From Haliclystus octoradiatus (taxonomy: Eukaryota > Cnidaria > Staurozoa > Stauromedusae > Haliclystidae), in NCBI GenBank assembly GCA_916610825.1, contig OU744448.1, forward strand, positions 22,485,032 through 22,549,031: a stretch of 64,000 nucleotides of DNA. Reading direction: 5' to 3'. The translations under genes were made by a program, and so were the position numbers. The notes under the pieces are model-generated. The model was given only the letters and a program-made list of their open reading frames with translations, did not search any database and was not told the origin of the DNA. Of the stretch, positions 51 to 60,400 are shown piece by piece; position 1 is the first letter of the stretch; the number at the start of each line of letters is the position of its first letter.

Positions 51-3000
51 CTCGATTAATCTAACTTTCTTTAAACTTTTGAGACCACCAATATCAACAG
101 ACTCAAAATCATAAACTTCTGAATCTGGAATTGGTGCAGCAATCTACATGATTAAGAAAGGTTAAAACAAGATCACTATATAAAGTAATAATTATCTAAC
201 AAGTATTAATAAATTAGTCTAGAGATCAAGCCGCTCTATAAAGAACACAGATGTCTTCAATTGTTCGCTTTTCAAAAGTGTTTCTATCAAGAGGAGAAGT
301 TTTCTTTGGGAAATATGGGTCATGAAGTTTGCTAATGTGAAATGGTACATTAATCTTTCATTAAAAGATGTTCCATTCATTACTAATATTTCCAATAAAC
401 CTCTCAAAGAGATAAAAATGAAAAGATGTTAAGAATTACAACAGAAAAAGAAACATTAGAGGGTTATGGGGGTAAAAAAGGGAAATATTGCAGGGTTATG
501 GGGTAGAAAGTGGGAACATTGAAGGGTTATGGGGTAAAAATTAGAAATTGCAAAAAAACTGCCAAACAGTATGGTAACCCTTCTGCCTGCCTCGATAATT
601 TGCTGGTGAATGGTTCATGAATTATTCATGAACTGAATTTGCAGGGTATTTGCTCACTTATGTACATTTTTATACAGTACTCTATATAAAAATGCATAGA
701 GTCAAAAAGACATAAAACACTAATACATTAAAAATAAATAAACAAATAGTAAACCGAAGTTACTTGATGCACTAACATTTGTAGTCTGTTGGATGATAGA
801 GCGAGTTTCAAGAGCAGTAGGTTCTTCATCTGAATATTCCACATTGTCTATATTTTGACATGAAGTAAGGTGCTGTTCATCACACATCTCATTAACAGGT
901 GTATTGACCTTTGATTGAAGCTGAGTTTTATGGAGTTCATCTGTAATTATCTCTACAGTACCATCAATTGAAGGATCATTGGTTTGACAATCTTGATCTC
1001 CCTCGAGAGAAGATTGTTCCTTTGTTACTTCATGATTTACATTGTCTTTGCTATTATCAACAATTGGTGAGAATGTTTCATTAGTGTTAGACACTGACAA
1101 AGATTTAGAGGCTGGTATTCCTTCTTCTGATGATTCTGAAAGAAAAGAAAATTAACGGAATCTCCTTATCAGTTATGTGCCTGTTATTATACTTTACATT
1201 ACTTTGGTCGGTAGGTCCTTCGGGGTCAGTCAGTCAGTCAGTCAGTCAGTCAGTCAGTCAGTCAGTCAGTCAGTCAGTCAGTCAGTCAGTCAGTCAGTCA
1301 GTCAGTCAGTCAGTCAGTCAGTCAGTCAGTCAGTCAGTCAGTCAGTCAGTCAGTCAGTCAGTCAGTCAGTCAGTCAGTCAGTCAGTCAGTCAGTCAGTCA
1401 GTCAGTCAGTCAGTCAGTCAGTCAGTCAGTCAGTCAGTCAGTCAGTCAGTCAGTCAGTCAGTCAGTCAGTCAGTCAGTCAGTCAGTCAGTCAGTCAGTCA
1501 GTCAGTCAGTCAGTCAGTCAGTCAGTCAGTCAGTCAGTCAGTCAGTCAGTCAGTCAGTCAGTCAGTTAGTCAGTCAGTCAGTCAGTCAGTCGGTCAGTCA
1601 GTCAGTCAGTCAGTCAGTCAGTCAGTCAGTCAGTCTGTCAGTTAGTCAGTCAGTTAGACAGTCAGTCAGTCAGTCCATCAGTCAGTCAGTCAAGAGTCAT
1701 TAAGTACCTTCATTTGCATCTTTTCTGCCAATAAAATAACCAATTGCCTCTTTGATTTTTACAAATACTTGCTTCCAGTCAATTGTAAAATGCTTCTCCT
1801 TTTCTTCTAAATTACTGTAAACATTTTCCATACCATAAAGTGAAACTAAAAAAAACATTTATGCATTAGTTTAACTTAAGGTTTATGATGATATATGCTT
1901 ATTTAACTTAAGGTTATACTATTAAGCTGTGATATTTATTTGAAAACATATAACAATAGCAGAATTGAATAATCGACATTACATACATATTTACCTAGTT
2001 GCTTGCATTTGGCCTTCCATGCACCTGATTTTAAAACTTCCAATCTCCATTCATGGCAAACCTAGCAGTCAAAACGAAAGATCAAATTGGATGATTTCCT
2101 ATTTTATAATACAATACATACAAATCCTATGTTGGTCATAATATAAAGGGGTATGCTAGATCATTGTTAGAACTTTCAAATCTAAACGTTTTAACTATTA
2201 GTAATTCTTAACAGGTGAGTCTACATTAATCAGCATATGGTAGATCTCCTGCGAAAAACAGTTCAGGAGTTCATGAACAGTTCATGAACAGTCCATGAAC
2301 GTTACATGGCACCAATTTTCCCGAAATGTTCATGAACTCTCACAGACAGCTTATGATCTATATTTAGGGTTGATTTAATAGTATACAGATGATTACTTTT
2401 GGTGTTAGATCTTCATTATCCTTGATATGTTCATATTAATATATGCTGAGTTATTTGGGTTATTCTTTCTGAAAATTTTATAACCATTTCATTGTTTTGA
2501 AATCGATATGATCATAAATAGAGTAGAAGATTATAGATTGCTTGGATTGGATCGGATTTTTAACGCAGGATCTGAATAAATCAGATTTTTTTCTGATTAA
2601 AACACAATCGAGTCGGACCATATCCGGATTGAAATTTTTTGCAAAAATTCATATTACTAATGCCTGGAAATCCAATACAAGTAGACCTTCACAATGCACA
2701 GTCCTCTTACCCCTTCCATGTCGTATAAATAATGCTCACTGGTTAGGCGAATCTATGATTTATTCCTTATTCTGATTTCAAATAAGCATTGTGAATATAT
2801 ACTGTAAATATTCAAGCTCAATTTTGTTAAAATGAGTGTGAGTGATCAAAGTAAAGAAGAGATAAGTTTGAAGAAAGCCTACCATTTCTGCTGACCTTAG
2901 ATCTCCAGGATTTAAATTCAGAAATATCTGATGCAAAATGTTTTTTGGCAATGAGTCTATACTCAAATGATGTTCTCTCCTGGAAATAACAGCAATAAAT

Positions 3001-6000
3001 AAATCAAACTGAAACTAACATTTTACACTAACCTAAAAATAATTGAATGATTGATAGTGATCCTCTGTATTGTAGAGATCATAATTAAGATTGTATAATC
3101 ATTGGTCTAGAATGATCCATCATCAAAATAATTTTGAGAGAAGATCATCATTGGAGCACTGTTATGCTTGAAGTATGGAATAGACATACCCTAGAAACAT
3201 AATTGTTAAAGTGTATTTACAATGCTCTGTGAAAACAGCTTAATTTGTGTAAGATAAACAATTTTGCATAATTAGCAAAAGTTGACACAACACTTAATAA
3301 TGAGGGGAGGGGCTGTTTGATCCTTCCTTAGAAAAAATGTATGTGCTTTTCATGAACTTTTCTTGAACCGTTCATGAAAATTAATATTGATTCCTTGTTT
3401 TCCAAGGGATTGTACTCATGGTCCTAAAAGGCCTAATTAACAAGGAGGACAATATGCAAACGTTCATGAACTGTTCATAAGCAGTTCATGAACACCTAAT
3501 AAACAGTTCATGAAAATTAGAACCCTTAACGTTCATGAACTATTTTCACATGGGATGCATGCATACTTATCAAAATTGTTTATTATTTGACAAACATATA
3601 TGAATAAATGAATAAAAATTAATAAACGAAAAAATCAGACATTCATATTTGCTACTATTAGTTTCACGCCAAGGCAATCATCAGGCAATTTAATCTGTGA
3701 AAAATGTATAAACTTGATCTTTAAACTTAACATAAGCCAGTGTTTAAAAATATTTTGAAACAGTGTTAAACAATATCTGTGAGAGAGTGCCTCCACAACA
3801 CCCCCTCGCATTAGTCTGCCTCTGCATCAGGCTGTCCGATATTGTGTGGGTTTTTCAAGTATAACTCCTTGTTCTTAAATTATAGCTGGAATGTTAGGTA
3901 CCAACTGATTCTTCATGACACATTTTGACTTACATTTTTCTTATCCAATCAGCAAGGAACAAGAGCTCTTCACGGCCACAATGCTGTAACAATTTCATAA
4001 GGCAGTCACCACGCTCTGCATCAGACCATGTATTCATGTGCTGAAAGTAAAGAAGTAATAAGCATCAAAGAGCATACATTCATTCAAATTAGCAATCAAA
4101 AATTATTCGCTTGATAAATATGTGTACATGAAATAGGTATATATCATTTTCAAGCTAAAAAGAAAGACTATAAATTTTTACATGAGTTATATAGTCTAAA
4201 CAAAATCTAATTTACATGATGTATTGTATTACAAAAACAATGAAATTCTATACAAAGACATGAAGATGAACAATGACAACTGTAGCTACGGAAATACACT
4301 ATGAGAATAACCTGGACTTCAGAGAGTCAGTTTGCACATTAAGTATGGGGTGTAACTCACTGATAGCAAGCATCTCATGTATTAAACAATCAAATTTTGA
4401 GGCCACACTTCCTGACAACAGTAGGCCTAAAAAGACATTTTTCATTTACAACGCTAATATCATGACTTCCTAAGCGTGGGCCGACAGCAGATTACTGATC
4501 AGTTGATACGGTAGACGGATTTTGAAACTTTCTTTTACATGTTAAGATTGGCTTATGAAACTCAATTAAATTAATTTTCAAAGCATTAGCTACTGTAGTG
4601 GCTTGCGCAAGAGATGTTATATATGTAGTCATGTAAATTGTCAGGTTGTAAACTGTTCATCCTCTTTCGCCTCTTGTTTTCATGGTTGTGTCTGTTATAT
4701 CAAAGTGTTCTGATTAATGGCCAAGTAGACCTTCCCCTGCAAAACAAATCCATGAGTCCATGAACCGTTCATTCAAATCATGAAATTTCATGAACAATTC
4801 ACGAACTTTCATGAACATTATTCATGCACTTCTTGAACAGCTCATTAACACTTTTTGTGGGTTCACGACCAGATCATGAACAGTCACAAAGAGTTCATGA
4901 ACTTGAAATCGCCTTAAAGTTCATGAACAATTCATGAACAGATCATGAACAGTTCATGAATTTTTGGGCAATTTCACGTTCATGAACTCATGAACTTTTT
5001 TGGCAAGGGTTAGTATCTCTCCCAGTAATGTCAGCAGCAGGGCCAATTATTAATATAATGAAGAGTATTGATCAATAAATATTGATTGTGTCATTTATCT
5101 ATCTGCCACAAATGGTGACTCATGCTTGATTTTAAAAATCAACCAGCAGCCTTTTATGTTATCGGATCAGACCAAATTGAGTCATAATGTAATCACAAAA
5201 TTGTCTAACTTGGTTCATTGTCGCTTCATTGAGAAAATTATGTGAAAAGATAGGCTAAAACTGGCATATTCCATTGGCAAAATGAAAAGCATAAACCTGG
5301 ACATGAATTATTTATCTTCATAACACTCAAATTATAGTACACGGTATGCTTCATTTATTTAGTTTCAATTAATTTATTATCAAATTCTTAATTTGCAAAA
5401 CAACATATTCGATTAGACATTACAAATTGATTTTTTAATAATAAAATATTTTATAAGTCTATTTTAAATATAATTTGAATAATACTTTTTCCAAACCCGC
5501 AACGATAGTAAGAATGACAAGAAGGCTTATTATATGTAAAAGGAACTTTGAAAATCGTATCACCATTCACACACAATTAAAAGTTTCTAACGTCAGCTAT
5601 GCCTACACCTCTGGAACACCTTTTCTGCTTGAAACAAGTTCATTCAACCGAGAAACACATGAGATACAAGGACATTTTATTAGTTGAAATAGCATTTTTA
5701 TTTAGAAAAAGGCTCAAACACCTGAAAAACATTTGTCACAAATTGTGGTGATATGTACACAAAACAGCGGGTGCGCAGTCTAAACTGTAGGCTGCAGGGC
5801 ATGATTGACACATTTTTGACAGAAAAAAGTAAATCCAACAACTAAAAACTTTTGTATTTCATGTATTTCTTAATAGATTATATTTATTTCAAGCAGAAAA
5901 GGTGTCCTAGAGGTGTGGGCATAGCTGACTTGACGTAAGAAACTTTTAATTGCGCGTGAAAGGAGATACGATTTTTTATAATTTTGACTTCACATTTTTT

Positions 6001-7531
6001 CTATAGTAAGCCCTTCTTCTTATTCCGACCATTCCAACTGTAGTTTTGAGTTTTAAAAATAGTGAATGATCATAAATATGGTAGATTCAACATTAAATAT
6101 CTCCGCTTATACGTGTTCAAAATAAGAAATGATTGTCATCATACTTCATCGTTTAGCTTCAGCTACCCAAATCTGTATTAAAATTTTGTTGTGTCATGTG
6201 CACTTCAAGGGAGAGATTACCCTTGTAAAGCAGTTCATAAACTTCAGCTAGTGCATGAACAGTTCATGAAAAAAGTTCATGAACAGTTCATGAAAAAAGT
6301 CCATGAAAACAGCCCATTTAACATTCATGAATTGTTCATGGACTGTTCACAAAGTCCATGAGCTTCCAAAGTACATGAACATGTCATAAGCTCAATTAAT
6401 TTTTTCGCAAAAAATGCAGTTGAACTGATTGCTGCATCTAAACTATTCCAGGAATAATGGAACAATACCCTTTTGGCTTCAAGTATGATCAGGCAATTAT
6501 AAATCCAATTATAGACCTAATCATACGCATGTTGTATAATATTTACAAGAAATGCTAACAAACACTTGCATGGACTCTTTGTTTTAACCCCTTTCTTGTG
6601 ACTCGCTATGCGCTAATTATGTTATTAGAATTTCATACCACCCTCTTATGTGTTCCTGTCACATAATTTTAAGGTCTAGATAAATTGACCAATACGGTCA
6701 GGCGGCTTTTATATACAGGTTTTTTAATTGAATAATGATTTTTGTATATTATCAAAGTGCCTATTACTGACTAGTGGTCTCTACCGCAGGTTTGTATTTT
6801 ATTCAAATTTAATATTCTAAAAGACCACTAACCAATGAGATAATGTTTTGTATTTCTTTATAATTCTGAAAGTGCTCTTTACCAACAATTTCTTTTGCAG
6901 CAGTATCCAAGTTGAACTGTTTATTGTTACTTTGAGATTTGCGAATCATGCGGCTTGACTTTTCACTAATTCCATCTGCCTTGATTTTTTTCAACTTGTT
7001 TTTGCAAGTTGGTTTCCTTAATTTTGTGTGTTTGGCATTTGATACGTTCTCAGCCAAATCTTGGTGACCGCATTGCTGGCTTTGAAAGCTTAATTGGTCG
7101 ATGAGTCTGCCAGTAGGCTCTCTTGCATGCTTATATTGCTGATTAGTGTTCTGACAGCCATATGTTTGAGTTGTGAAGCATGCTTCAGATGATAAATAGA
7201 TTGAGTTCATTAAACGTGAAAGTGGTAGGCCTAATGATTGGGTAGAAGATACAGAAACATCCAATGATATTTTGAATTCCCTGTGGAAAATAGGCTCGAC
7301 GGCAGTTGATAAAACTCTAAAATAGCACTTTGAGCAATCTTTCAGTAAATACACAAAAGTATTTTTCTTCTGCCACGATTTTAATGATAGAAAACGCTTG
7401 GATAATCGCGTTGATGTATCTTCTTTAGTAACAGACAAGTTAAAATGTTTGACACTTCGTTGATTCTGATTCTGGCTTTGATAGACATTCTTGGAAATTG
7501 AAACCACTCGCGAGGGCACAATGTCTTTCAT
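51..7531 (-). CDS. F-box protein gene (5' part; continues past left edge)
   Basis: Proposed coding exons on the minus strand, in order: 7531-6833, 4040-3934, 2979-2883, 2061-1995, 1845-1708, 1135-777, 354-247 (uncertain) and 143-51. They are bounded by AG/GT sites and the phases agree. The first ATG (7531-7529) follows 'cgaaa'. Residues 1-233 are a Ser/Lys/Gln-rich region I cannot assign. A short helical segment follows (MNTWSDAERGDCLMKLL...), like the region before the F-box in FBXO16 and beta-TrCP. The F-box lies at about residues 276-318, with the core LPKNILHQIFLNLNPGDLRS and then VCHEW. After it come a linker (residues ~325-370), a 119-aa acidic, Ser/Thr-rich exon, and a segment containing GGLKSLKKVRLIE. 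F-box proteins bind SKP1 and act as substrate receptors of SCF ubiquitin ligases. Subfamily and substrate are unknown because the C-terminal part is outside the window. The F-box is well supported; the last two exons are less sure. Confidence 0.72.
1225..1692. repeat. (GTCA)n tetranucleotide microsatellite
   Basis: About 468 bp of nearly pure GTCA repeats, perfect until about 1565 and then broken by single substitutions. It fills most of the intron between F-box gene exons 1845-1708 and 1135-777 and ends 16 bp from the 1708 splice donor. The tetranucleotide gives open SVSQ-type reading frames that are artefacts of the repeat. Confidence 0.97.
2245..2340. mobile_element. GTTCATGAAC-family element (single recognisable end)
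   Basis: It begins with CTCCTGCGAAAAACAGTTC, the family's left end, then carries four or five copies of TTCATGAAC. No matching right end is visible, so it is probably truncated. It lies in an intron of the F-box gene. Confidence 0.6.
2883..2979 (-). CDS. F-box core exon
   Basis: This 97-nt exon starts after 'atttccag' and ends at ATG|gtaggc. It completes a split Met codon from the previous exon and then encodes REHHLSIDSLPKNILHQIFL and NLNPGDLRSAEM. The pattern LP..IL..IF..L.P.DL..AEMVC is the diagnostic F-box helix set that contacts SKP1. The next exon (2061-1995) continues with VCHEWRLEVLKSGAWKAKC, the usual conserved Trp end of an F-box. This is the strongest evidence for the identity of the gene. 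Confidence 0.85.
3345..3545. repeat. GTTCATGAAC palindrome cluster
   Basis: A loose cluster of TTCATGAAC and diverged forms (TTCATAAGC, TTCATGAAAA) in an intron of the F-box gene. Clear family ends are not visible, so it is probably a decayed copy of the same family. Confidence 0.5.
4734..5010. mobile_element. GTTCATGAAC-family element with both ends
   Basis: The left end CCCCTGCAAAACAAAT and right end TTTTTTGGCAAGGGTTA are inverted versions of each other. The interior holds about twelve full or decayed TTCATGAAC units. It sits in the large first intron of the F-box gene. Confidence 0.65.
5470..6208. mobile_element. Fold-back element, second subfamily, left end truncated
   Basis: The two halves are inverted relatives. 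The left half reads 'agtaagaatgacaagaaggc' and then 'cacctctggaacaccttttc'. The right half carries 'gaaaaggtgtcctagaggtg' and then 'gcccttcttcttattccgac'. The right end GTGTCATGTGCACTTCAAG matches the end of the fold-back elements at 35732 and 51588. The left terminus is missing. Confidence 0.6.
6220..6412. mobile_element. GTTCATGAAC-family element
   Basis: It begins CCCTTGTAAAGCAGTTC and ends near TTTTTTCGCAAAAA. Between these lie about eight TTCATGAAC or diverged units. It starts 12 bp after the end of the fold-back element at 5470-6208, so two mobile elements sit side by side. Confidence 0.55.
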
Positions 7532-9246
7532 TTTCGTCAACTCATATTTGAATTAATAATCTTCTCAACCCTGATAAAATTAAAGCAAACGAGTTTCACG
7601 AGGAAAATTTTAGAAGCATGCAATAAGCCTATACAGTACTAGCACGTTTTCTAGCAATCACTGTCCATTTTGTTGACCTTGGAAACAAATAACATTTCTT
7701 GTCTCGCCTTCAGGATTATTGAAGAGGCGAATACATTAGGGCAGATTTGAAAATGAAAAACTGAGAACGTTTGCGGCACGTGAAACTGTGTTTATTTCCT
7801 GTACTAACGTCGAATTCACGAAATTATTGGACATATTTATTGATCAAGTCATTAGAACTAAAGGTAATAATAATAATATATCACTAAAAACCTAAACTGC
7901 CTGATAAAAGTGTACCACTTGAGTGCTTGGATGACTGAACCAATGTCATCTGATCTCCTTCTCCTAAAGCTCATCGCTCATTGAGCAAATATTGATCCCA
8001 ATGTCGACCTTCCACATCCACACTACACAGGGGAACATTAACCTAGTAGTAACTAGTAAAGTAATTAAATAGGCCTGCGCATGTTGGAAATTGAACCCAT
8101 AACTGTGAGTCGTGACTGAAGCCCAAATCAATCTCTGCTCAACTCACAACCTGACTGCATAGTTGCGCGGATGCGCGAATGATATTTTGTATTTTAAAGA
8201 AGGTTTAGTACCATTTCAAGAAAAATGCGATCAGGACTCACAACAATGGGGGAATCGACATCGCCGCATCAGTGATCAGACGTCAGACGACAGAAGGCAT
8301 AGTCTACTCAACTGTAGAAGTTTTTACGAGTTGTGACGACATAATAATGCAGGTTTAAAACTCCGATCTGATTGGACTGAATATTTCTCGTATGTTCAAT
8401 CTTTTTTATGCAATAGGCTAATCCCAGTCTGCAAAGCAGCTGCGCCCCCGAGATGAACATTTTTCTCGTGATTGCCGCCCCTGGAGCTGCAATTTTCATG
8501 GAAAATTGGCAGTTAAAAATTATTATTTTGTCATTTTCTTCGTATTTTTTGCTGAAATGATGGATTTTGCCGTCCCTGAAGTCAAATTTAATCAGTTGCC
8601 CCCCCCCACCCCCAACTTTTTTCGCCGCTGATGCCCCCGAGATCTCGTCGAGATTGCCATTATTTGCAGACTGGGGCTAATCTTTGCATTAGGTAGCCTA
8701 AATTTTCTCGACTGGATATTCCCCGGCAAAATTTTACGCTCTTAATTCCCCTAAAAACTATTTAATATTCATGGAATATTCCTAAATTTTTATGAAATAT
8801 GATATCAAACTCCACCGCCAAAACATGTTGGCAAAGAGCGGGAAATTCCGCACCAATATCGTGTTGGCAGAGAAGTACTGGCAGTCCTCCAAAATGTTCA
8901 GAGCGCAAAGTGAGCAATCGTCTATGTTATCACCTGAATTCGGATTTAGCCATATAAAAATAAGAAAGACTTTATAAAATTGTAGACCTATTAGAAGATT
9001 ATTATGCATTAGCAGGCTAAGCCTAGGCTAATGGTTTTTATCTAAAATTGAACTATACAATTTTCAAACCTTCGCATCAAAATTATTTTCTAATTACTTT
9101 CTGGCCCGAATAATGTTGCGAAGAAATTTCTATTTCAAGGTTGTTGACTTGGAAATATCCATTCAAACATTTCCATGCCTACATTAATGTTTCGTTTCTC
9201 ATTTCAAGGTCAAATGACCGTTTAAGTGTTTATTCAGTGGATCACC
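7532..9246. other. Divergent intergenic region between the F-box gene and AQR
   Basis: About 1.7 kb separate the two start codons, and promoters and 5' UTRs of both genes must lie here or in unseen upstream exons. I see no convincing TATA box. The region contains a hAT-like MITE (8424-8674) and a C-rich run (about 8596-8617). A tRNA-like stretch lies near 8070-8165, with GGGTTCAATTTCC on the minus strand. Confidence 0.6.
8424..8674. mobile_element. hAT-like MITE with 8-bp target-site duplication
   Basis: A 251-bp element with inverted ends CCAGTCTGCAAA and TTTGCAGACTGG. It is flanked on both sides by GGCTAATC (8416-8423 and 8675-8682), an exact 8-bp duplication typical of hAT transposition. 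The interior has a long C-run and no coding capacity. Confidence 0.85.
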
Positions 9247-49636
<40,390 letters not shown>

Positions 49637-50056
49637 GGTATCAAGTTTATCAGGAACATAATTACAAAAACTTTGCGGATCTATGGCTGTGTTATCGTGT
49701 ATACAGCTCAGACAAAACAAACATTAGTTCTATTTAATACCTTATATCTAATAGGGTTACTATGAATTATGTGGGTGATAGATCTTTAGGCCATTACATA
49801 TTTTTTCATTTTATATTAGCCTATAGTATGATTGCTTAGGACTGCATCAAAATTACATACTTTGTAAATGAGAGAGACCCACTATAACTGATCTATGGAA
49901 GAAGAAGTTGACAAACTGTTTTGCAAAGAGAAATAATATTGCTTTCATGCCTGCATGGTGTCATTTTTCATATTTATTTCAAAACATGATCTGTATGCTT
50001 TACTTATTTGAATTATAAAGCTAAATGATACATGTTCGATTTTAAATGGGTAGAGG

Positions 50057-50062
50057 AATAAA
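50057..50062 (+). terminator. Candidate AQR polyadenylation signal
   Basis: A canonical AATAAA hexamer about 420 nt downstream of the AQR stop codon. It is a plausible signal only, since the hexamer is common by chance in AT-rich DNA. Confidence 0.35.
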
Positions 50063-50363
50063 ATTTTAAACATCTGACTCACTGTTGAACTGCAAAGCCT
50101 TTATATCTTCAAACCTTAAATTATTTTAAAAAAAAATTAATTTGCCTTTGTTGCTATTTATAAAAATATTGGTCGGTTCTTCATCCAATTTCCATGTTTT
50201 TGAAGACTTTATTAATTTCTTCAATTCTTCAATATGAAATCATTGGTTGAACTTTGTAGCCCACTACTTCTCCTTCATAAACTATCAAAATATGCATGTT
50301 AACTTTAAGAATGCAAACTATATTTCATCATTCTAATCTATACCTATAAGTTCAAAAGTCACT

Positions 50364-50720
50364 ACAGTAGAAACTGTTTATAACTGCACCCCAGGGGAGC
50401 TTCCAAAATGTATGCTATGGGTGATTTGCGATTAGCCAATTACTCATAAGAAGAAGGATACCAAATTGCACCAGGAAGATCAATTAACTTCAGTATGATA
50501 TAGATGATATAGACAGTGTTCTGTTATAAACGTCACGTTATACAGTGTAACCCGCTTAAGTGCAAGTCAAAAATGGCAACGATTTTTATTGCATTTATCC
50601 AAATTTGCAGTTATCCTAAATTGTTTACTGGGTTTCAAAGCCAGGTTGCAGATAAGCGGGAATTTCACTTTTCCGAATTGCACGTAAGCGGGTTATTGTC
50701 TGTAAACAGTTTCTACTTTA
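50364..50720. repeat. TIR-bounded repeat in AQR 3' region
   Basis: The ends CAGTAGAAACTGTTTATAAC and CTGTAAACAGTTTCTACT are inverted. Inside, 'cagtgtaacccgcttaagtg' pairs with 'gcacgtaagcgggttattg'. The stretch 50390-50480 is shared in inverted orientation with 46081-46200. Confidence 0.6.
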
Positions 50721-51110
50721 TAAGTCGAATTTTGAGAACACACCAACTCAATTGAAACAGCTGTTATTGCTTATATCGGGTATTAAATTTTACCAGCAAC
50801 CCGGGTGCATCTTTGCAAGTACTGTATACTACTTGATTTTCCCTTGAACATAATATTAGTCTTTTATCACAAAATTCTATAACTTTTAAAATCAACGCAA
50901 TTTAGTTCAGTTGAGCAGTTTAGCAATTACTATCTTACTAGCACAGTGGGTTCATAAAAAAAGATTAAACAACAGTTATACACTTAGTTTAAAAATTGAT
51001 TAAAAATTTGACTGCAGTAATTCAAAAGATAGCTACCATATTTGAAAAAGTTATGTGTGATGATTTTAAAAATAATATTCTATACAAATTTGAATGCTAT
51101 TATATATTAA

Positions 51111-51458
51111 TCACGTAACCCATGGAGGTTGACGCGCTTTCCTTTGAATTCGACTTGACGGAGAGTTATCTCGTTTCATACGATGTGGTTTCTTATCACA
51201 ACTACTTGAACCATATAAAAGTGATAGTTTTGTTGGTTGTGTCGTATCTTCTGATTTGTGCGGATAAGTATGTTGTATATCTTCATCTGAATGTTGCCTA
51301 CGGTTATTATTTCTTCCTAAACGATGTAATGATTTATCAAGTATGTGTCTTAATTGTTTAGCATCACATGCAAGTGTATCGACTGATTGACTGATTGATG
51401 GGCGTGTGACATTTTCTTGGTCTTCATCATACCTTTTATTTTCAGAACGATAGTTGAG
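51111..51458 (-). CDS. Last coding exon of the rootletin-like gene
   Basis: A 348-nt open stretch after 'tttcattag', ending in TGA at 51113-51111. It encodes 115 residues, rich in His/Asp/Arg/Ser, including QLRHILDKSLHRLGRNNNRR and a C-terminus RKARQPPWVT. The composition is clearly coding-like, and the phase fits the exon at 53381-53297. No similarity to a named domain is recognised. Confidence 0.72.
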   Translation of the reverse strand, partial: LNYRSENKRYDEDQENVTRPSISQSVDTLACDAKQLRHILDKSLHRLGRNNNRRQHSDEDIQHTYPHKSEDTTQPTKLSLLYGSSSCDKKPHRMKRDNSPSSRIQRKARQPPWVT

Positions 51459-54400
51459 CTAATGAAAGGCAAGTTCAGAGAGATATGACATTGTTAGAAA
51501 TAAGGCAACACCTACATATAAACACCACATCTGATATATTAACAAATTGAAGATTAGAAACAGGTGGTCTTTATATTCAGGTTTGATTTAAAGTGCACAT
51601 GACACCAAAAAAAATTAGTCCGGAATCGAGTAGCCCATGCAAAATAAATAGCAATTGCGACAATAATTTTTCGATTTGGACTCTTATAAGCGGAGATATT
51701 TAATTTTGAAAGTACCATATTTCAGAAATAGTGCTCTTTCGAAAGTCGGAACTCATACCGGAATGACAAGAGAGCCCACTGTGGAAAAATAACCAAGTCT
51801 AGACTTCCTTAAAAAAAAATCGTTACTTTTTTCTCGCGAAAAAGAAATTGTCCACTTTCCAGAACAGATATGCCTATATCTTCGAGACACCTTGTTGGCC
51901 ATAAATGACTGAAATCGAACGTGAAATGTAGTGTTTAGAAAGGTTTTATTAGACTTCGATGGAGTTTTTCTGTCAAAAAGGTGTTAAAACACTGGATTAA
52001 CGCATGTTTTGGATCAAGGTGTTGACTACTAAAACAGCGGCGAAACGCCTTGTATTCACTTCGCCGCGGATGATGATCTAAACGTCTATAAAGTTTTAAA
52101 ACATTCATTGCGCTATTTTGGTTAATCTCCCGCAGCTTAACGTCAGTGCTTTATTGATTGGTCAGCTTCAATCTCAAGAAACGCGTCTGCTGGAAGGCAA
52201 ACAGGGGGTCATGCAATGGCTTTTAATAGCCAATCATTGAGATTGTAGCTGACAAATCAGTGAAGCACTGACGTTAAGCTGCAGCAGATCGACCAAAATA
52301 GCGCAACGAATGTTCTCAAAATGTTATGGGCGTTTAGATCATCATCATCGGCGAAGTGAATACAAAGCGTTTTGCCGCTGTTTTAATAATCAACACCTTG
52401 ATCCAAAACATGCGTTAATCCAGTGTTTTAACACCTTTTTGACAGAAAAACTCTACGTTTCACGTTCAATTTCAGTCATATATATATGGCCAACAAGGTG
52501 TCTCAAAGATATGGGCATACCGGTATCTGTTCTGGAAAGTGCACAATTTCTTTTTCGCGAGAAAAAAGTTACGATTTTTTGAAGTCTAGACTTGGTTATT
52601 TTTCCATAGTGGGCTTTCTTGTCATTCCGACATGAGTTCCGACTTTCGAAGGAGCACTATTTCTAAAGTATGGTACTTTCAAAATTAAATATCTCTCCTT
52701 ATAAGAGTCCAAATCGTAAAATTATTGTCGCCATTCCTATTTATTTTGCATGGGCTACTCGATTCCGGTATCAAAATTTTTGGTGTCATGTGCACTTTAA
52801 TGATACATTAAAATGCCAACATAGGCAGGCGGCTGATGTATAAAGGTAGCTATTATAGTATGTTTTTTCTAAGACTGTGTTTAGAAGGTTAATTGCCCCA
52901 TTCATAATTTGTTGTGTGATCTTATTCAAATTATGTTGATTTGAATGTATAAAAATTGACAATCCAAAAGTTCATGTATTATTTTAATTATTTCATGAAC
53001 TGTGATTAGCAGATGTTAGAATGTACCTATTCCTATGCTATAGTGTGATGCTTGCCTAATGCCTATCTATTGGTCATAATTGGCATAACTGTAAGCTAGC
53101 CACTCCCTGGTGCCTTGATTTGATTATGGGCTATCCATTATTTGCCTTTAAAACTCAGGTTCCCGTATGGTGTTTTATTTTGGAAGCCTTGATTGCTTTG
53201 CTAACTGTTAACTACAATGCTTATCATGGTAGTTTAGATTATTAGTTTCATAATATCAATTCCTTTGGTAGGCAAAAATGACTGATCTTTCAATACCTCG
53301 TAGCTGTCTCTATCGTGTGTTGGAGATTGACGGTGATTGTAATGATCATGCTGAGGTTTTTCTTTACAATGCTGACCCAACCTGCAAATTGATTTAAATC
53401 ATTAATATATGAATCTTGAACAAATTTAAAAAATAATTAAGTTGTCCACAATTTTATTTTAAAAGATAGGATAAAAGTTAAACATACTGCATGAACCATG
53501 TATGCTGCAGTATGTGTTAAAATCAGAATGTATTATCCAATGTTGTAGTATGGATTTAACCTACAAACAAACCTTTTGCATGATTCCATGTTAGACTTCT
53601 ACACGTAATACTCAGAATACTCACCGATGTTGTATTACACTATCTCTAGCCAGCACAGCTTCAGCTTCGTCTAAGCGATCTCTTAATGTCATATTCTCTG
53701 TTTTAGCCTGCTTAAGATTCCTATCCAGTAGCGAATTCTCTTCTACAACATCTATAAAATGTCTCTCCATATTTGTGCGATCATTTTCTGTTTTGTGTAA
53801 TAGTTCTTTTAATTTATTAACATCTTGCTTTTTACGATTCACTGGTCCTTTGACAATGTTATCTTTTGGTGGGGCAGCATTTGGTGTTGATTTTTCTTTA
53901 GATTTTAAACGATGTTCTATAATTTTCTTTTCTTCCTGAAGTGAAGCTACCCTGTGCAATAGCTCTTTCATAGTTGATGTTTGTTCTTTGTATGCTTTTG
54001 CCATTCGATGTAATTCATCATCACTAGTTGTAGCATGCTTCTCTGCTTTTGAACGATATCTTTGCATTTCAGTCATTTTCTCTACATCTTTTTCACGTTC
54101 TCTTTGACTTTTATCAAGTAATTTTGATAGATTATTATTTTCTGATTCAATTTTATCCATTTGCGATCTTGTAGCTTTCATTATATCATGAAAATCTTGC
54201 GCATTTTGACATTTTTCATCCATTGCATTCTCAAGTGATCTGACTGTGTCTTGAAGTGTACGATTATCATCTAATTGTATTGCAATATCGGTTTCATAAA
54301 CACTGCATTTATTCTCTGCAGTGATTAATCGTTTCGCTAAATCCTTATTGTCTGTTATCATTCTATCTAATTGAATACAAAGACTTTCATTTTCACTCTT

Positions 54401-57400
54401 AAGTTCGTCAATTTTACGTGTTTGTGCTTCTAAATCTACTTGGAATCTTCTTGTCTCTCTTTCCGATTTGGAGAAACGGGATTCAACATCCTCAAGTTGC
54501 AGGCGTAAACCACGTTTATCTTCTGCTTGCTTAGATGACGATGATTGACTTCGTTGTAATTCTGATTTTGCATCTTGTAATTCCATTTCAATCACGTGAT
54601 AGGCTTTCTGTAGTTCAGACACACGACTTAACAACTCTTTCCTTTCTTGTTCTTTTCTTGCTAAATCTTCTTCCTATTTAATAAGTAAGAAGATTAAAAA
54701 TCAGAAACTGAATAGAACTGAAAAGAGAAGGTATCCAAAAAGGACGAAGCCAAGTAGGTATGAAATGTTTATTAGCCTACCCTTGAAATTCACGTAAACA
54801 AAACTGAAATTATTAGCCAATTAACATGCTTTTTACCTGTAATGTAATTGTGGTTTGAGTTCTGTCAAATTGTGCTTCAACTCTTTCTTTTGCCCTTTCA
54901 TTTGCATCACATTTTTGCATTAAAGAATTATTTTCATCGTTTTGTTCTACTAATTTGCATTCAACTTCATCAATTTTTCTTTGGAGTGCTTTGATTTGAC
55001 GTATTCCTTCATCTCGTTGGTTTTCTATTGCGTTGATTAATTCTGATACATCTTTGAGTGCTCGTTCGACGAATTCAGCTGACACTAATTCTTCTGAAAA
55101 CAAAATTATATACAGACATCATACAAACACAATTGCCTTCCCTTGAAATAGCAACAAATAGGCTAGTTATTTCCTGTGTATTTTAAGACTATATGAGAGT
55201 ATTATGTTATTTGAAAAACTTTTGACTTTGCATTTACATTTAATCACACAAGAACTTCCAATAAAATACTGTTTATCAAACACAGAGATAGGTATGGCCA
55301 TCTTTTACACAACGATGCTCAAAACAAAATATGCAAAAAAATATTTAGACATACAGTGAAACCTGTTTCTAAAATATCACAAAGGTTTTCTGTAATCTGA
55401 TTGGTCGAAAGAGCGTGCATGCAATCTTAAGGTAAAACATGGCTCCAAAAACCGCTAGCTTCAAAGTTTGATCTGTGATAAAATGCAGAAATTATAACTT
55501 TCCGATAACAATCAAATAAATATCTAAATTATGGCAACGAATTACGAAACGATATTTAGCTCAAGATGTTTATATTTATTGAAAAGCGTCATAAATAAGT
55601 TATTTGCCGTGCAGCATGCAAAATAAAAACACAGAATGAAAGACAATTATAGGGCTACGCTGTTTCAAGGTAAACCTTACATTTAGATAAAAATTAGTAC
55701 ATCAATTTCTAGAGAATGTATAATTTATATTACAGACCTTCTTGTATGTGTCTTTTCTTTATTCAACAATAAATATCTTGTTGTGGGATTTCCTTTGCTT
55801 GGTTTATGAATTGAAATTGAATTTTAAATTGTGAATTGAGAATTCGCCCTCGAGTGAGATTCTGACTTTTTGTTTTATTTAAGAAAAGGGTTACCACACG
55901 CTTGCCCATGTTTGTATTCATATTACTAAACGAGAAAAAGTGCAACCTTAATGGTGTGGTAACCCTTTAATATAACAGCCAGCTAAGAGAGGTAGATAAA
56001 TTGACCACTATAAACAGGTGGCCTTTATATACAGGTTTGATTCAATAGAAAATATTATTGTAGACATTGCAAGAATGACCACTATAGACAGGTGGCCGCT
56101 TTATAGAGGTGACCGTTATAACAGGTTTGGCTGTAGTACGTAAAAGGTTTGCTACACATAGAGGTTTGTGGTCTTTCAAAACTTCCCTCAAGTGTCCCTT
56201 AGCATCTTTGTGTGGAAAATATGAATATAAATATGTAGGCCTAGTCAGGGCCTAGTTAATGTGTGATAACAACCCTTTAACGATGGTCCAAATAGGCCTA
56301 CTTACCAGGTGAGCTGAGACCACCTTTACTTTCATCATTGTTTGTTATGTCTTTGTCAGTCAAACCAAGACCACGTCGTATAACAGAACAAAGTGAACTC
56401 AAATGAAACTCAATGTCACTTTTATCATCTTCAATACGTTGAAGTTGCATTTCAAGTGCTTGATTTCTAGAACCAAGTCCTTTTGCATCTAATTCTTTTT
56501 GATCATGTTGCTTTTGCATGTTAACCAAAATTTTCTCAAGTTCCTCAACTCTACATCTCGTCTTTGATTCTGTATTTGAAAGAACGTCAAGATCTGTTTC
56601 CCATTTATTCTGTTTACTCAAATAGTCTTCCTGTTGCAACTTTATCCTAAATGCAATTGATTATTACTGTTAGTTATGTGACTGTGACTATAAGCAAGAC
56701 ATTTATTGAGGGCTGTATTGCTTAAATTTAGAATAGGAAACTATATTCCTAGATACCAGGTGTCACATACCAAATATTTAATAACTTTTTTGATAATGAA
56801 TCCTGTTAGATTAATATTCAGTAAGAACATATAGTTTACTTAAAGTGAAATATAGTTCATGAAAGGTTCCTTAAAAATTTCACAACAACAAAAGTTCATG
56901 AAATTTGTGTGTACTGGGATTGGGCTAACCATATAGGCCGTAACCCATTGCCTAATACATCGACTATAATAAATAAACATCTAAAAATTAGTAAAAAATA
57001 AATGTTTTTCAGTCCCCTATGAAACACAGTCAATGAAGTTCATGAACTTTAAAAGGCATTTGTCATTCAGGAACGTTTATGAACAATCATTTATCAAAAA
57101 GGTTTCTAAAATATTATGTTGTAATCGAATGTAATCCTGAAATTTGATTGGTTGTTCCAGTGTTTAGAAATTCAAGAGTAAACATTTTCAAAAATTCCCG
57201 TTGAAATCTGTCCATAAAATTTTGTCAGAATGCTCAAAGCTGAAGAAGGATAGGAAACTACAATGTATTACTGAAGAAATAATATCAACAAAGCTGTCTC
57301 TATTTAAGAAAGACTAACGTTTTGAAGTTTTAATTTGATCCAAGAGCATTTAGTAAGTGAAAACATTGAATTCAAATTGAATTTTAAATCAATAATTCAA

Positions 57401-60400
57401 GATTTGAACGACCTTATATAAACAATATAAACAAATTTGATTATGATATTTGTTTTATTTTAGAAAAGGTGTGCTTGCAATTGTTTTATGTTCATATTTA
57501 TTACACTCAGAAAAGTTGGAAGACACTCTGAAAGTGTTGAAAGCACTCTTCGACAATTCACATGTGTCTTCCAACATTCCTTGTGCAGTGAATATGAATG
57601 CAAACATGGCAAGTGTGTGGTAACCCTTTAGTCATGATCAAACATTTATAAGCTGGTTTGGTTCTCAATGTGTGCAAACATCAAACAGAATTAAAAATCT
57701 CAATATTAGCCCTAATGATGCCGTTACAGATAGATAAAAGAATATTGCATCCAAGGTGGAATTTAATGTTAGGATTGTTAGGTAGACCTACTTTTTCTGT
57801 GATTGATAATTTTCTTTCTCCAATTCAACAATTTGTGTGTCCTTTGTTTTGACAGATCTTTCAAAGGAGTTCAATTTATCCCTTAAATTTGTGTTAATTT
57901 GTTGCGTTTCCTCTAAATTTTCTGTCAGAAATTTTAAATTTTGACTATGTTCGTTAGCTATTTTATTTACTGAGCGCATTTCTACAATTGCAGAATCGAG
58001 TTCTTTTTTTAAGCTATCTTTTTCTTGAACAATAGTTTGCATATCTTCCATTGCATGGCTTGTATTCTTCTCGGCAACTTCACTTCTTGTTATAGTATCA
58101 AACAACTGTTCTTCGCAATATTTTAATTTCCTTTCAAGTTCATGTTTTTGGTCTCTTAGCTTTTGACATGTTTCTGTAACATTTGTTAAATTATCTTGTA
58201 AACTAAAGCGTTCCTCATCAGTACTTTCAGCTAGATGTTGCAAACGTTGAACCTCTCGCTGAAGAGTACTGTTGATGTGAGACACATCACGTAATCTAAG
58301 TTGGGTGTCATTTAATTCACCCATAGCCTTGTCTTTTAATTCATCTGAGATCTTTACTTCCACTTGCAATCTTCCAATTTGACGCTGACATTGCCGCAAT
58401 TGTTCATTTGCATCGTTAAGTTTTTGTTTTGTGACTTTCTCGTCTTCAAACCGTGCAACACTACAATATAGCACACAAATAATTAACTTTAACCAATTAA
58501 TTTAGTCTACTTGCATATGACACCAAAAATGTTTTTCCGGAATCGAGTAATCCATGCAAAATGAATAGGAATGGCGACAATAATTTTTCAACTTGGACTC
58601 TTATAAGCTGAGTTATTTAATGTTGAAAGTACCTCATTTCAAAAATAGTTCTCTTTCGAATGTCGGAACTGATGTTGAAATGACAAGAGAGCCCACTATG
58701 GAAAAATAATAAAGTCTAGACTTCAAAAAATTTTCTCGCAAAAAAGAAATGGTCCACTTTCCAGAACAGATATGCCTATATATTTGGGACATTTTTGGGT
58801 ATTCAGGAGATAATGACCAAAATTGAGCAATGTTTTATGACATGTGTTGATCCGGTGTTTCAACACCTTTTCGACAGAAAAACACCATTGAAGTCTAATA
58901 AAACCTTTCTCAACTCTACAATTCACATTCAATTTCAGTCATGTATGGCCAACAAGGTGTCCCAAAGATATAGGCATATCTGTTCTGGAAAGTGGACACT
59001 TTTTTTTCGAGAGAAAAAAGTTACAATGTTTTGAAGTCTAGACTAGTTCTAGTTATTTTTCCATAGTGGGCCCTCTTGTCATTTTGTCATGAATTCCAAC
59101 TTTCAAAGGAGCACTATTTCTGAAATATGGTACTTTCAACATTAATTAACTCAGCTTATAAGAGTCCAAATCGAAAAATTATTGTTGCCATTCCTATTTA
59201 TTTTGCATGGGCTACTCGATACCGGAAAAACATTTTTTGGTGTCACATACACTTTAAATCATTCTAATTTGTGCACCAGTATAGAAATTACAAATTATAA
59301 TTAGCATAATGAATTTGTTGACATGAGTCAGACAGAATTGACCTAGAACATCAACTAATAGAGGCTGGTGCTGATTTGATAGGATTCCGTAAGTTTGACA
59401 GCTTGACAGGTCTGTTTATAGTAAAATGTTATTTCAAGTAGGCCTATGCAATAGGATATCCCCAATGTTGCAAAGCTAACCTTGTGCCTTTCAGTCTGGA
59501 ATTTAAGAATATGGGACAGTAATTACACTGTTTAGCTTACCGCATCTCACTAAATGTTTCTTTTGCCACTTGCAAGTCCTTTTCAACAGCTTTTAGTCTG
59601 TTCTGAGAGGAATAAATAAATAAGTGTTTGAATAACAATAGATAATATTGAAATACTTCAATTTGAAAACAATTATGTAGCCTAACTAAATCACATTGGA
59701 TTTCATCAGTTGGGACGGAGTAGGCCTAACATGCCTATTTTCGTTAGATATATATTCCAGAAGTATGGGATTCAATCCCCTGACTCGTCATTTTAATTTG
59801 TTCCTTAGTTTCAAATTTATAAAGTTTGTATTTGTCAATGATGCACAGGTGTTACGATAACTAGGATTGGGAAGGCACAAATAAGGAGAATGAAGCCGTA
59901 GGAGCGCTGACATTGTCACATACGAATGATGTGGGTTGGTTACGAAAAATCTGTCTGCTTAGGCTACTAATGTTAGAAATAAAAATCTGGTTCACCATGG
60001 CCTATGAGAAATGCCAATTTGGAGAGGGCATGATCTACTGTCTAGATTTAACAGCATAAATATGGTCATACATTATTTTATGTTAAATTGGGAAAACCAT
60101 AGTCATTATATAATAATTTATAATTTAAACAATTTAAATTTTAGTTTATAAAGTGATTTTGTGATAGATTTAACATAACTTTATTGGGGATCCCGCATAA
60201 TTGAATCCTTACCTGAAGTTCTTCCTCATGTTTAGAATGTTGCATGACAAACTATAAATTTGAAATGTAGTATGCTAGAATTTAATATATTCTTTATTCA
60301 ATCGGAGGCCTACGCAGTAACAGCATGTTAAATTTTAGGTTTAGTTTGAACTGTTGGATCTATCTTTGGATGAACTTGAAATTATTGTTTAAACTTAGAA

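What the first reader, a model, noticed from the sequence alone, without database searches (positions are those of the whole stretch)
2245..57080. A family of elements built from the 10-bp palindrome GTTCATGAAC
More than a dozen clusters across all three genes contain reiterated GTTCATGAAC (its own reverse complement) or close variants. Several are bounded by inverted ends of the form CCCCTGCGAAAAA and TTTTTCGCAGGGG with TA or TTA outside. The combination of transposon-like ends and an interior that grows by short palindromic units is unusual. Units vary by single bases in a way that suggests local array expansion and decay. I do not recognise this family.
Basis: partly seen in the sequence, partly recalled or inferred. 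Interest (0 to 1): 0.82.

Follow-up and report, generated by a model that had tools for sequence, protein, structure and literature searches.

The report
Young transposon family built from palindromes
These palindrome clusters are copies, large and small, of one recently active family of DNA transposons with no gene of its own found; its dense palindromes are probably docking sites for the enzyme that moves it, and in the youngest copies they also match the DNA code for heat-shock control.

Summary
Confirmed, and more than a satellite. The window holds 46 exact and 67 one-mismatch GTTCATGAAC units (about 3 expected). They belong to one abundant family of TIR-type DNA transposons in an unnamed 262-Mb eukaryotic genome: 2889 exact CCCCTGCGAAAAA ends against 6 for the reversed control, with units on the inner side of the ends. 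The window has one full-length copy (32144-35301, TA/TA), two clear short copies (4734-5009, TT/TT; 46460-46655, TA/TA) and about a dozen decayed or partial ones.

TA/TTA is corrected: the target-site duplication is 2 bp of any sequence (18 of 25 elements, 2.4 expected; 3 bp 0 of 25), and 38 paralogous empty sites support it for one insertion. Full-length copies (about 3.2 kb) are some 98% identical and lack long ORFs, so something else moves them. I found no autonomous partner. Architecture and TSD length resemble CACTA/EnSpm, but the CACTR terminus is absent, so I do not file it there.

Most likely the units are phased dyad sites for a transposase or helper acting in trans. An open twist: adjacent units are 10 bp apart in full-length copies and 11 bp apart elsewhere; the 10-bp register makes 24-36 heat-shock-element matches per copy.

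The parts
32144..35301 (+). full-length 3158-bp element, TSD TA/TA
   Evidence: 6 of 2110 middle sites differ from the majority of 15 copies
32142..32143 (.). left copy of target-site duplication (TA)
35302..35303 (.). right copy of target-site duplication (TA)
32144..32156 (+). left terminal inverted repeat CCCCTGCGAAAAA (exact)
32157..32544 (+). left array, 23 units at <=1 mismatch
32545..34718 (+). non-coding middle, no frame over 115 aa; its longest frame has no Pfam match
34719..35287 (+). right array, 22 units at <=1 mismatch; length nearly constant between copies
35289..35301 (-). right terminal inverted repeat TGTTTCGCAGGGG (1 mismatch)
4734..5009 (+). short element, 276 bp, 10 units, TSD TT/TT
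46460..46655 (+). short element, 196 bp, decayed left end, exact right end, TSD TA/TA
36842..36917 (+). short element, 76 bp, two units, both ends; flanks CT/TT do not match
2246..2337 (+). left part of a short element, end CTCCTGCGAAAAA, 4 units, no right end seen
3348..3554 (+). decayed copy, right end ATTTTCACATGGG (3 mismatches), 6 units
6233..6380 (+). decayed copy, 7 units; degenerate ends at about 6219 and 6405 by eye only
18445..18605 (+). decayed copy, 10 units, mainly 11-bp spacing, right end TTTTTCGCAGGAG
20506..20684 (+). cluster of 4 units with a degenerate end at 20591
37509..37599 (+). fragment: one exact unit and right end TTTTTCACAGGAA (3 mismatches)
47176..47246 (+). two decayed units after a degenerate left end at 47114 (3 mismatches)
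48677..48776 (+). two decayed units and right end TTTTTCGCAAGTG (2 mismatches)
57014..57084 (+). fragment: left end CCCCTATGAAACA (3 mismatches) and two units

Best explanation
A family of non-autonomous cut-and-paste DNA transposons: full-length copies of about 3.2 kb and many short MITE-like copies. Shown: the termini form a 13-bp inverted repeat CCCCTGCGAAAAA; insertion duplicates 2 bp of any sequence; the subterminal zones are arrays of an 8-bp palindromic core TTCATGAA with variable edges, adjacent units being 10 bp apart in full-length copies and 11 bp apart elsewhere; the middle is non-coding; full-length copies are young. Inferred: a transposase encoded elsewhere in the genome, now or formerly, acts in trans; a dimeric DNA-binding domain (its own or a helper's) reads each palindrome; units about one helical turn apart load several dimers on one face of the DNA and give a short motif its specificity, as TNPA sites are held to do in En/Spm and THAP sites in Galileo. 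The arrays lengthen and shorten by slippage or unequal exchange.
For: Ends 2889 against 6 control; two-unit 21-mer 6283 against 0. Units lie inside the ends: 26 of 47 inside and 0 of 47 outside, from coordinate lists not chosen by bait; in held sequence 40 of 41 ends have a unit inside and 6 of 41 outside, and after removing the 16 right ends of bait elements 24 of 25 inside and 2 of 25 outside. TSD: 18 of 25 match at 2 bp against 2.4 expected, 0 of 25 at 3 bp or more; TA 3, AA 3, TG 3, TT 3, AT 2, CA 2, GG 1, AG 1. Empty sites: the L015 insertion lies in a repeat of roughly 190 bp (1896 candidates); 38 of 40 scored rows run through the junction, the other two being its own flanks; two of these sites were viewed as alignments. 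Activity: 40 scored copies of the middle at 94-100% identity out of 388 candidates; 15 copies average 98.2% pairwise. No frame over 115 aa in the full-length copies outside the L020 insert. In older window copies the edges of the unit vary about three times as often as the core: positions 1 and 10 changed in 40 of 162 cells, positions 2-9 in 47 of 648. Adjacent spacings: 204 of 10 bp and none of 11 bp in 15 full-length copies; 77 of 11 bp and none of 10 bp in 144.6 kb outside them.
Against: No autonomous element or transposase with these ends was found, so mobilisation in trans and binding of the units are not shown. 7 of 25 both-ended elements lack a 2-bp match: five of nine short copies, the full-length L026 and the mixed L025. 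One end in L021 has no unit inside. The unit may be an inert array that grew by slippage; young copies give no clear sign of selection on it (private changes in 16 of 2871 right-array core cells against 203 of 32015 in the middle). In the window's full-length copy the core is not uniform: position 7 changed in 17 of 65 units and position 4 in 8 of 65.
Confidence: 0.72

Rival explanations
1. Heat-shock lattice: GTTCATGAAC is nTTCnnGAAn, a dyad of heat-shock-factor pentamers, and the 10-bp-spaced arrays of the 3.2-kb subfamily are contiguous heat shock elements that recruit HSF1 and make the element, or nearby genes, heat-responsive.
For: 24-36 overlapping matches to nGAAnnTTCnnGAAn or its complement in each of 15 full-length copies, 442 in 47.5 kb, against 16 in 144.6 kb outside them (which removes overlapping sequence that made one search give 52 in 152 kb); 31 of 38 in the window lie in 32144-35301. 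The 10-bp register is exclusive to the full-length copies in the sequence held. Perfect four-pentamer 20-mers: 564 in the genome, 0 control. Precedent: Helitron-borne HSEs bound by HSF-1 in C. elegans (PMC6927752, passages).
Against: In old copies the two central bases, free in an HSE, changed in 9 of 162 cells, as rarely as TTC/GAA (38 of 486) and unlike the edges (40 of 162); in the full-length window copy the HSE bases at positions 4 and 7 vary more (25 of 130) than the free centre (5 of 130). The rest of the family uses 11-bp spacing, which breaks the HSE register, and it is far commoner: 6283 against 564 exact sites. The pentamer is TGAAC where, as I recall, HSF1 prefers AGAAn. No binding or expression data.
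Confidence: 0.13
2. An outlying CACTA/EnSpm lineage whose terminus has drifted from CACTR to CCCCTG, moved by a tnp2-type transposase.
For: A short TSD of any sequence, 13-bp TIR and reiterated subterminal motifs match CACTA anatomy; the genome has 36 PF02992 matches.
Against: A CACTA copy with the transposase (L042) has, by my reading, CACTATGAG/CTCATAGTG ends, a 3-bp CTA duplication and GCTGAAAA subterminal repeats, not these ends. None of 12 loci of about 3.4 kb around PF02992 matches has a CCCCTGCGAAAAA end at <=2 mismatches. In four wider stretches (L041-L044, 8.9-9.9 kb) such ends are absent from L041 and L043; [quoted passage not shown] L044 has one look-alike inside a transposase frame. 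In all 13 of the 36 matches were looked at.
Confidence: 0.3
3. A satellite-like motif that spread by itself, with the ends coincidental.
For: Arrays do change in length.
Against: Fixed orientation of units inside ends, a 2-bp TSD and empty sites, and dispersed 98%-identical 3.2-kb copies.
Confidence: 0.02

Closest known systems
CACTA/EnSpm transposons (En/Spm, Tgmt*)
   Same: Short TIR, short TSD, reiterated subterminal motifs read by an element-encoded DNA-binding protein (PMC2613891, passages).
   Different: No CACTA terminus; 2-bp not 3-bp TSD; motif is a perfect palindrome; no transposase found.
Foldback-like elements, Galileo (P superfamily)
   Same: Long internally repetitive ends in which multiple transposase THAP-domain sites were identified (PMC3688188, abstract).
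   Different: Galileo TSD is 7 bp (recalled); here 2 bp. Galileo has long TIRs; here a 13-bp TIR and two unequal arrays.
MITEs with 2-bp TSD of unassigned superfamily (Repbase 'DNA2' style names, recalled)
   Same: Short non-autonomous, high-copy, TIR and 2-bp TSD.
   Different: Palindrome arrays and a young 3.2-kb partner.
HSE-bearing Helitrons of Caenorhabditis
   Same: Mobile element carrying dense repeats of the HSE consensus (PMC6927752, passages).
   Different: Not a Helitron: has TIRs and a TSD. HSF binding untested.
ISL2EU and PIF/Harbinger (PHIS)
   Same: Cut-and-paste elements with 2-3 bp TSD.
   Different: TSD AT or TWA, and ISL2EU TIRs usually begin GG (PMC4482050, passages).

Membership tests
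TIR-type DNA transposon / MITE | terminal inverted repeats and constant-length TSD | tested here: met
   18 of 25 at 2 bp against 2.4 expected; empty sites of one insertion
TIR-type DNA transposon / MITE | no coding capacity, dispersed high copy number | tested here: met
   no frame over 115 aa in full-length copies, the longer frame in L020 belonging to an insert; 2889 exact ends
CACTA/EnSpm | termini begin CACTR | tested here: not met
   termini CCCCTG in the family; canonical CACTATGAG in L042 of the same genome
CACTA/EnSpm | subterminal reiterated short motifs | tested here: met
CACTA/EnSpm | tnp2-type transposase (PF02992) in an element with these ends | tested here: inconclusive
   36 matches in the genome; 13 looked at, none bounded by these ends within the stretch read; 23 not read
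CACTA/EnSpm | TSD of 2-4 bp (range recalled) | tested here: met
   2 bp
PIF/Harbinger | TSD TWA (3 bp) | tested here: not met
   3-bp match 0 of 25
ISL2EU | TSD AT and GG at the TIR start | tested here: not met
   AT in 2 of 18 matching TSDs; TIR CCCC
Foldback/Galileo | internally repetitive long ends | tested here: met
   left arrays of about 290-490 bp, right arrays of about 560 bp in 14 of 15 copies
Foldback/Galileo | TSD of 7-8 bp (recalled) | tested here: not met
   TSD 2 bp
Foldback/Galileo | P-superfamily transposase | not tested
   no search was made for it
Helitron | no TIR, no TSD (recalled) | tested here: not met
   TIR and 2-bp TSD present
Heat shock element | contiguous nGAAn/nTTCn pentamers | tested here: met
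   mainly in the 3.2-kb subfamily: 442 matches in 47.5 kb against 16 in 144.6 kb outside
Heat shock element | HSF binding and heat response | not testable with these tools
   no functional data

The most novel reading that the evidence does not exclude
The active 3.2-kb subfamily has moved its palindromes from the 11-bp spacing of the rest of the family to 10 bp, so that its transposase-binding array is also an unusually dense array of heat shock elements, and it is scattering ready-made HSF1 platforms (perhaps 75 copies, some 30 HSE matches each) through the genome, tying its own mobilisation or nearby genes to heat stress.
Probability: 0.12. Interest if true: 0.7.

Novelty: new variant of a known kind. 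Interest (0 to 1): 0.42.

Why it matters
It supplies a young, very abundant DNA-transposon family whose superfamily is open: short TIR, sequence-free 2-bp TSD and palindromic subterminal arrays. Finding its transposase would tell whether a CACTA-like enzyme can use non-CACTA ends. If the young subfamily's arrays bind HSF1, it would be another, unrelated case of a transposon dispersing heat shock elements, and one that shows how a transposase-site array can turn into a regulatory one by a 1-bp change of spacing.

Tried and rejected
Autonomous partner: PF02992 and PF06869 (one match, below its cut-off) in the genome; 12 loci around PF02992 matches and wider stretches L041-L044, of which L041-L043 enlarge three of the 12, show no element bounded by these ends. 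The convergent end pair C1:769132/773492 was sampled (L045, 1.6 kb): by eye it looks like introns and exons of a host gene with decayed copies, so that pair is probably coincidental. PF09588, PF13359 and PF05699 were asked for and never answered; nothing is concluded about them.

RNA: 45 Rfam matches in 32000-35500, all below gathering scores, most of them microRNA hairpin models; I read these as an artefact of palindromes. Literature: CCCCTGCGAAAA occurs in two held papers on Hessian fly (listing only), not pursued; the five array strings searched are in none of the held papers; listings from searches on foldback elements and 2-bp TSDs and on ISL2EU and CACTA showed no title that names this family. 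This does not cover Repbase or Dfam, which could not be searched.

TA/TTA as a target rule was rejected. Satellite reading rejected. Selection on units in young copies: no clear signal. My first count of heat-shock matches outside the full-length copies (52) was inflated because L016 holds part of the L017 copy; one search masks this and gives 16, and my first tally of bait right ends (14) is corrected there to 16.
Full report
What is there. GTTCATGAAC occurs 46 times exactly and 67 times with one mismatch in the window, 113 sites against 3.2 expected, in 16 clusters and 7 singletons. That it is an animal is my guess from the kind of genes and retroelements seen; no call tested it.

It is a family. 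CCCCTGCGAAAAA occurs 2889 times exactly in the genome against 6 for the reversed motif, and CCCCTGCGAAAAAGTTCATGAAC 65 times against 0. I fetched 20 of the 65 places with 9.4 kb downstream. With the window copy, 15 full-length or near full-length elements of 2777-3368 bp were taken for comparison. Six of the 20 loci were left out: L009 and L019 lack a clean right end, L020 is 5696 bp because it holds an insert with a gag-pol-like frame (my reading of the translation), and L013, L021 and L025 are other arrangements. The 15 have a left array, a middle of about 2.2 kb (shorter in L017) and a right array that spans 555-560 bp from first to last unit in 14 and 471 bp in L011. In the middle, the 15 copies average 98.2% pairwise identity (96.1-99.5%), and the window copy differs from the majority at 6 of 2110 sites. 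A 1.9-kb query from the middle found 388 candidates, of which 40 were scored, at 94-100% identity. A 20-mer of two units at 10-bp spacing occurs 564 times; by my count 48 of the 50 distinct places listed fall in runs of 3-8 within about 3.2 kb, so I infer roughly 75 full-length copies. The full-length copies have no frame over 115 aa outside the L020 insert, and that frame has no Pfam match: they are non-autonomous.

Ends and target site. In the window and L009-L028, 25 elements with both ends (<=2 mismatches, at least one unit, at most 3.6 kb, two duplicates from overlapping loci dropped) were tested. The 2 bp on either side match in 18 of 25 against 2.4 expected from swapped flanks; no element matches at 3 bp or more. 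By type, 14 of 15 full-length copies match (L026 does not), 4 of 9 short ones, and 0 of 1 mixed one (L025). For L015 the joined flanks with one TT removed align through the junction with a repeat in the window at 50539-50696 and in L009, and 38 of 40 scored genomic matches of that repeat run through it, the other two being the flanks of L015 itself. In L024 a full-length copy sits inside an older short copy of the same family.

Units and ends go together. From two coordinate lists on C1, both complete for the stretch used, 26 of 47 exact ends have an exact two-unit 21-mer within 300 bp inside and 0 of 47 outside; the commonest offset is 22-23 bp. In held sequence 40 of 41 ends have a unit inside and 6 of 41 outside; without the 16 right ends of bait elements this is 24 of 25 and 2 of 25.

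Anatomy of the unit. In old window copies positions 1 and 10 changed in 40 of 162 cells and positions 2-9 in 47 of 648: the retained core is TTCATGAA, centre included. The full-length window copy differs: positions 7 and 4 vary in 17 and 8 of 65 units, chiefly through a repeated GTTCATCAA form. Adjacent units are 10 bp apart 204 times and never 11 bp in the 15 full-length copies, and 11 bp apart 77 times and never 10 bp in 144.6 kb outside them; wider steps such as 20, 21, 22 and 31 bp also occur. The left array varies in length between copies, the right array hardly.

How it most likely works. A transposase encoded elsewhere makes 2-bp staggered cuts at the ends; a dimer binds each palindrome, and many phased dimers give a short site its specificity. 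This is inference by analogy with TNPA sites in CACTA elements (PMC2613891, passages) and THAP sites in Galileo (PMC3688188, abstract). No partner was found: PF02992 has 36 matches, and the 13 looked at are not bounded by these ends in the stretches read; L042 reads as a canonical CACTA element with CACTATGAG ends and a 3-bp duplication.

Heat-shock reading. GTTCATGAAC is nTTCnnGAAn, and at 10-bp spacing units join into heat shock elements. The 15 full-length copies hold 442 overlapping matches to the trimer consensus in 47.5 kb, against 16 in 144.6 kb outside. Against it: the central AT is as conserved as TTC/GAA, and the commoner, short part of the family keeps an 11-bp register that breaks the element. 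I keep it as the most novel reading.

Filing. It is a TIR-type non-autonomous DNA transposon family with MITE derivatives. It works like CACTA or foldback elements, but fails the CACTR terminus and the Galileo, Harbinger and ISL2EU target-site rules, so it is not filed in any of those superfamilies.

Noticed in passing
L042:1169-8688: A CACTA element with transposase (PF02992): CACTATGAG/CTCATAGTG ends, CTA duplication, GCTGAAAA-type subterminal repeats, beside an exon that looks by eye like an RNA polymerase second-largest subunit.
   Followed up: partly
window 50539-50696; L009:8260-8359: Another very abundant short repeat of roughly 190 bp (1896 candidates in the genome), which served as the empty site; no GTTCATGAAC unit at <=1 mismatch lies in the window copy.
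   Followed up: partly
window 1225-1692 and 13480-14071: Long, almost perfect four-base arrays: (GTCA) 117 copies and (TATT) 148 copies.
   Followed up: no
L020: A full-length copy carrying a 2.5-kb insert with a 632-aa frame that looks by eye like a gag-pol retroelement piece with part of the polymerase region missing.
   Followed up: no
C8:10723743 and 16 other places: Seventeen similar partial PF02992 matches (about positions 7-64 of the model), 12 of them in a 115-aa frame, suggesting a multi-exon CACTA-like family; the one copy read (L044) lies beside retroelement-like frames.
   Followed up: partly
window 53621-58501, minus strand: Exons of a long coiled-coil protein, rootletin-like by eye only; Pfam matches all below cut-off.
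   Followed up: no
L024:105-3644: A full-length copy nested in an older short copy of the same family (outer ends at 105 and 3644), so the family lands in itself.
   Followed up: yes
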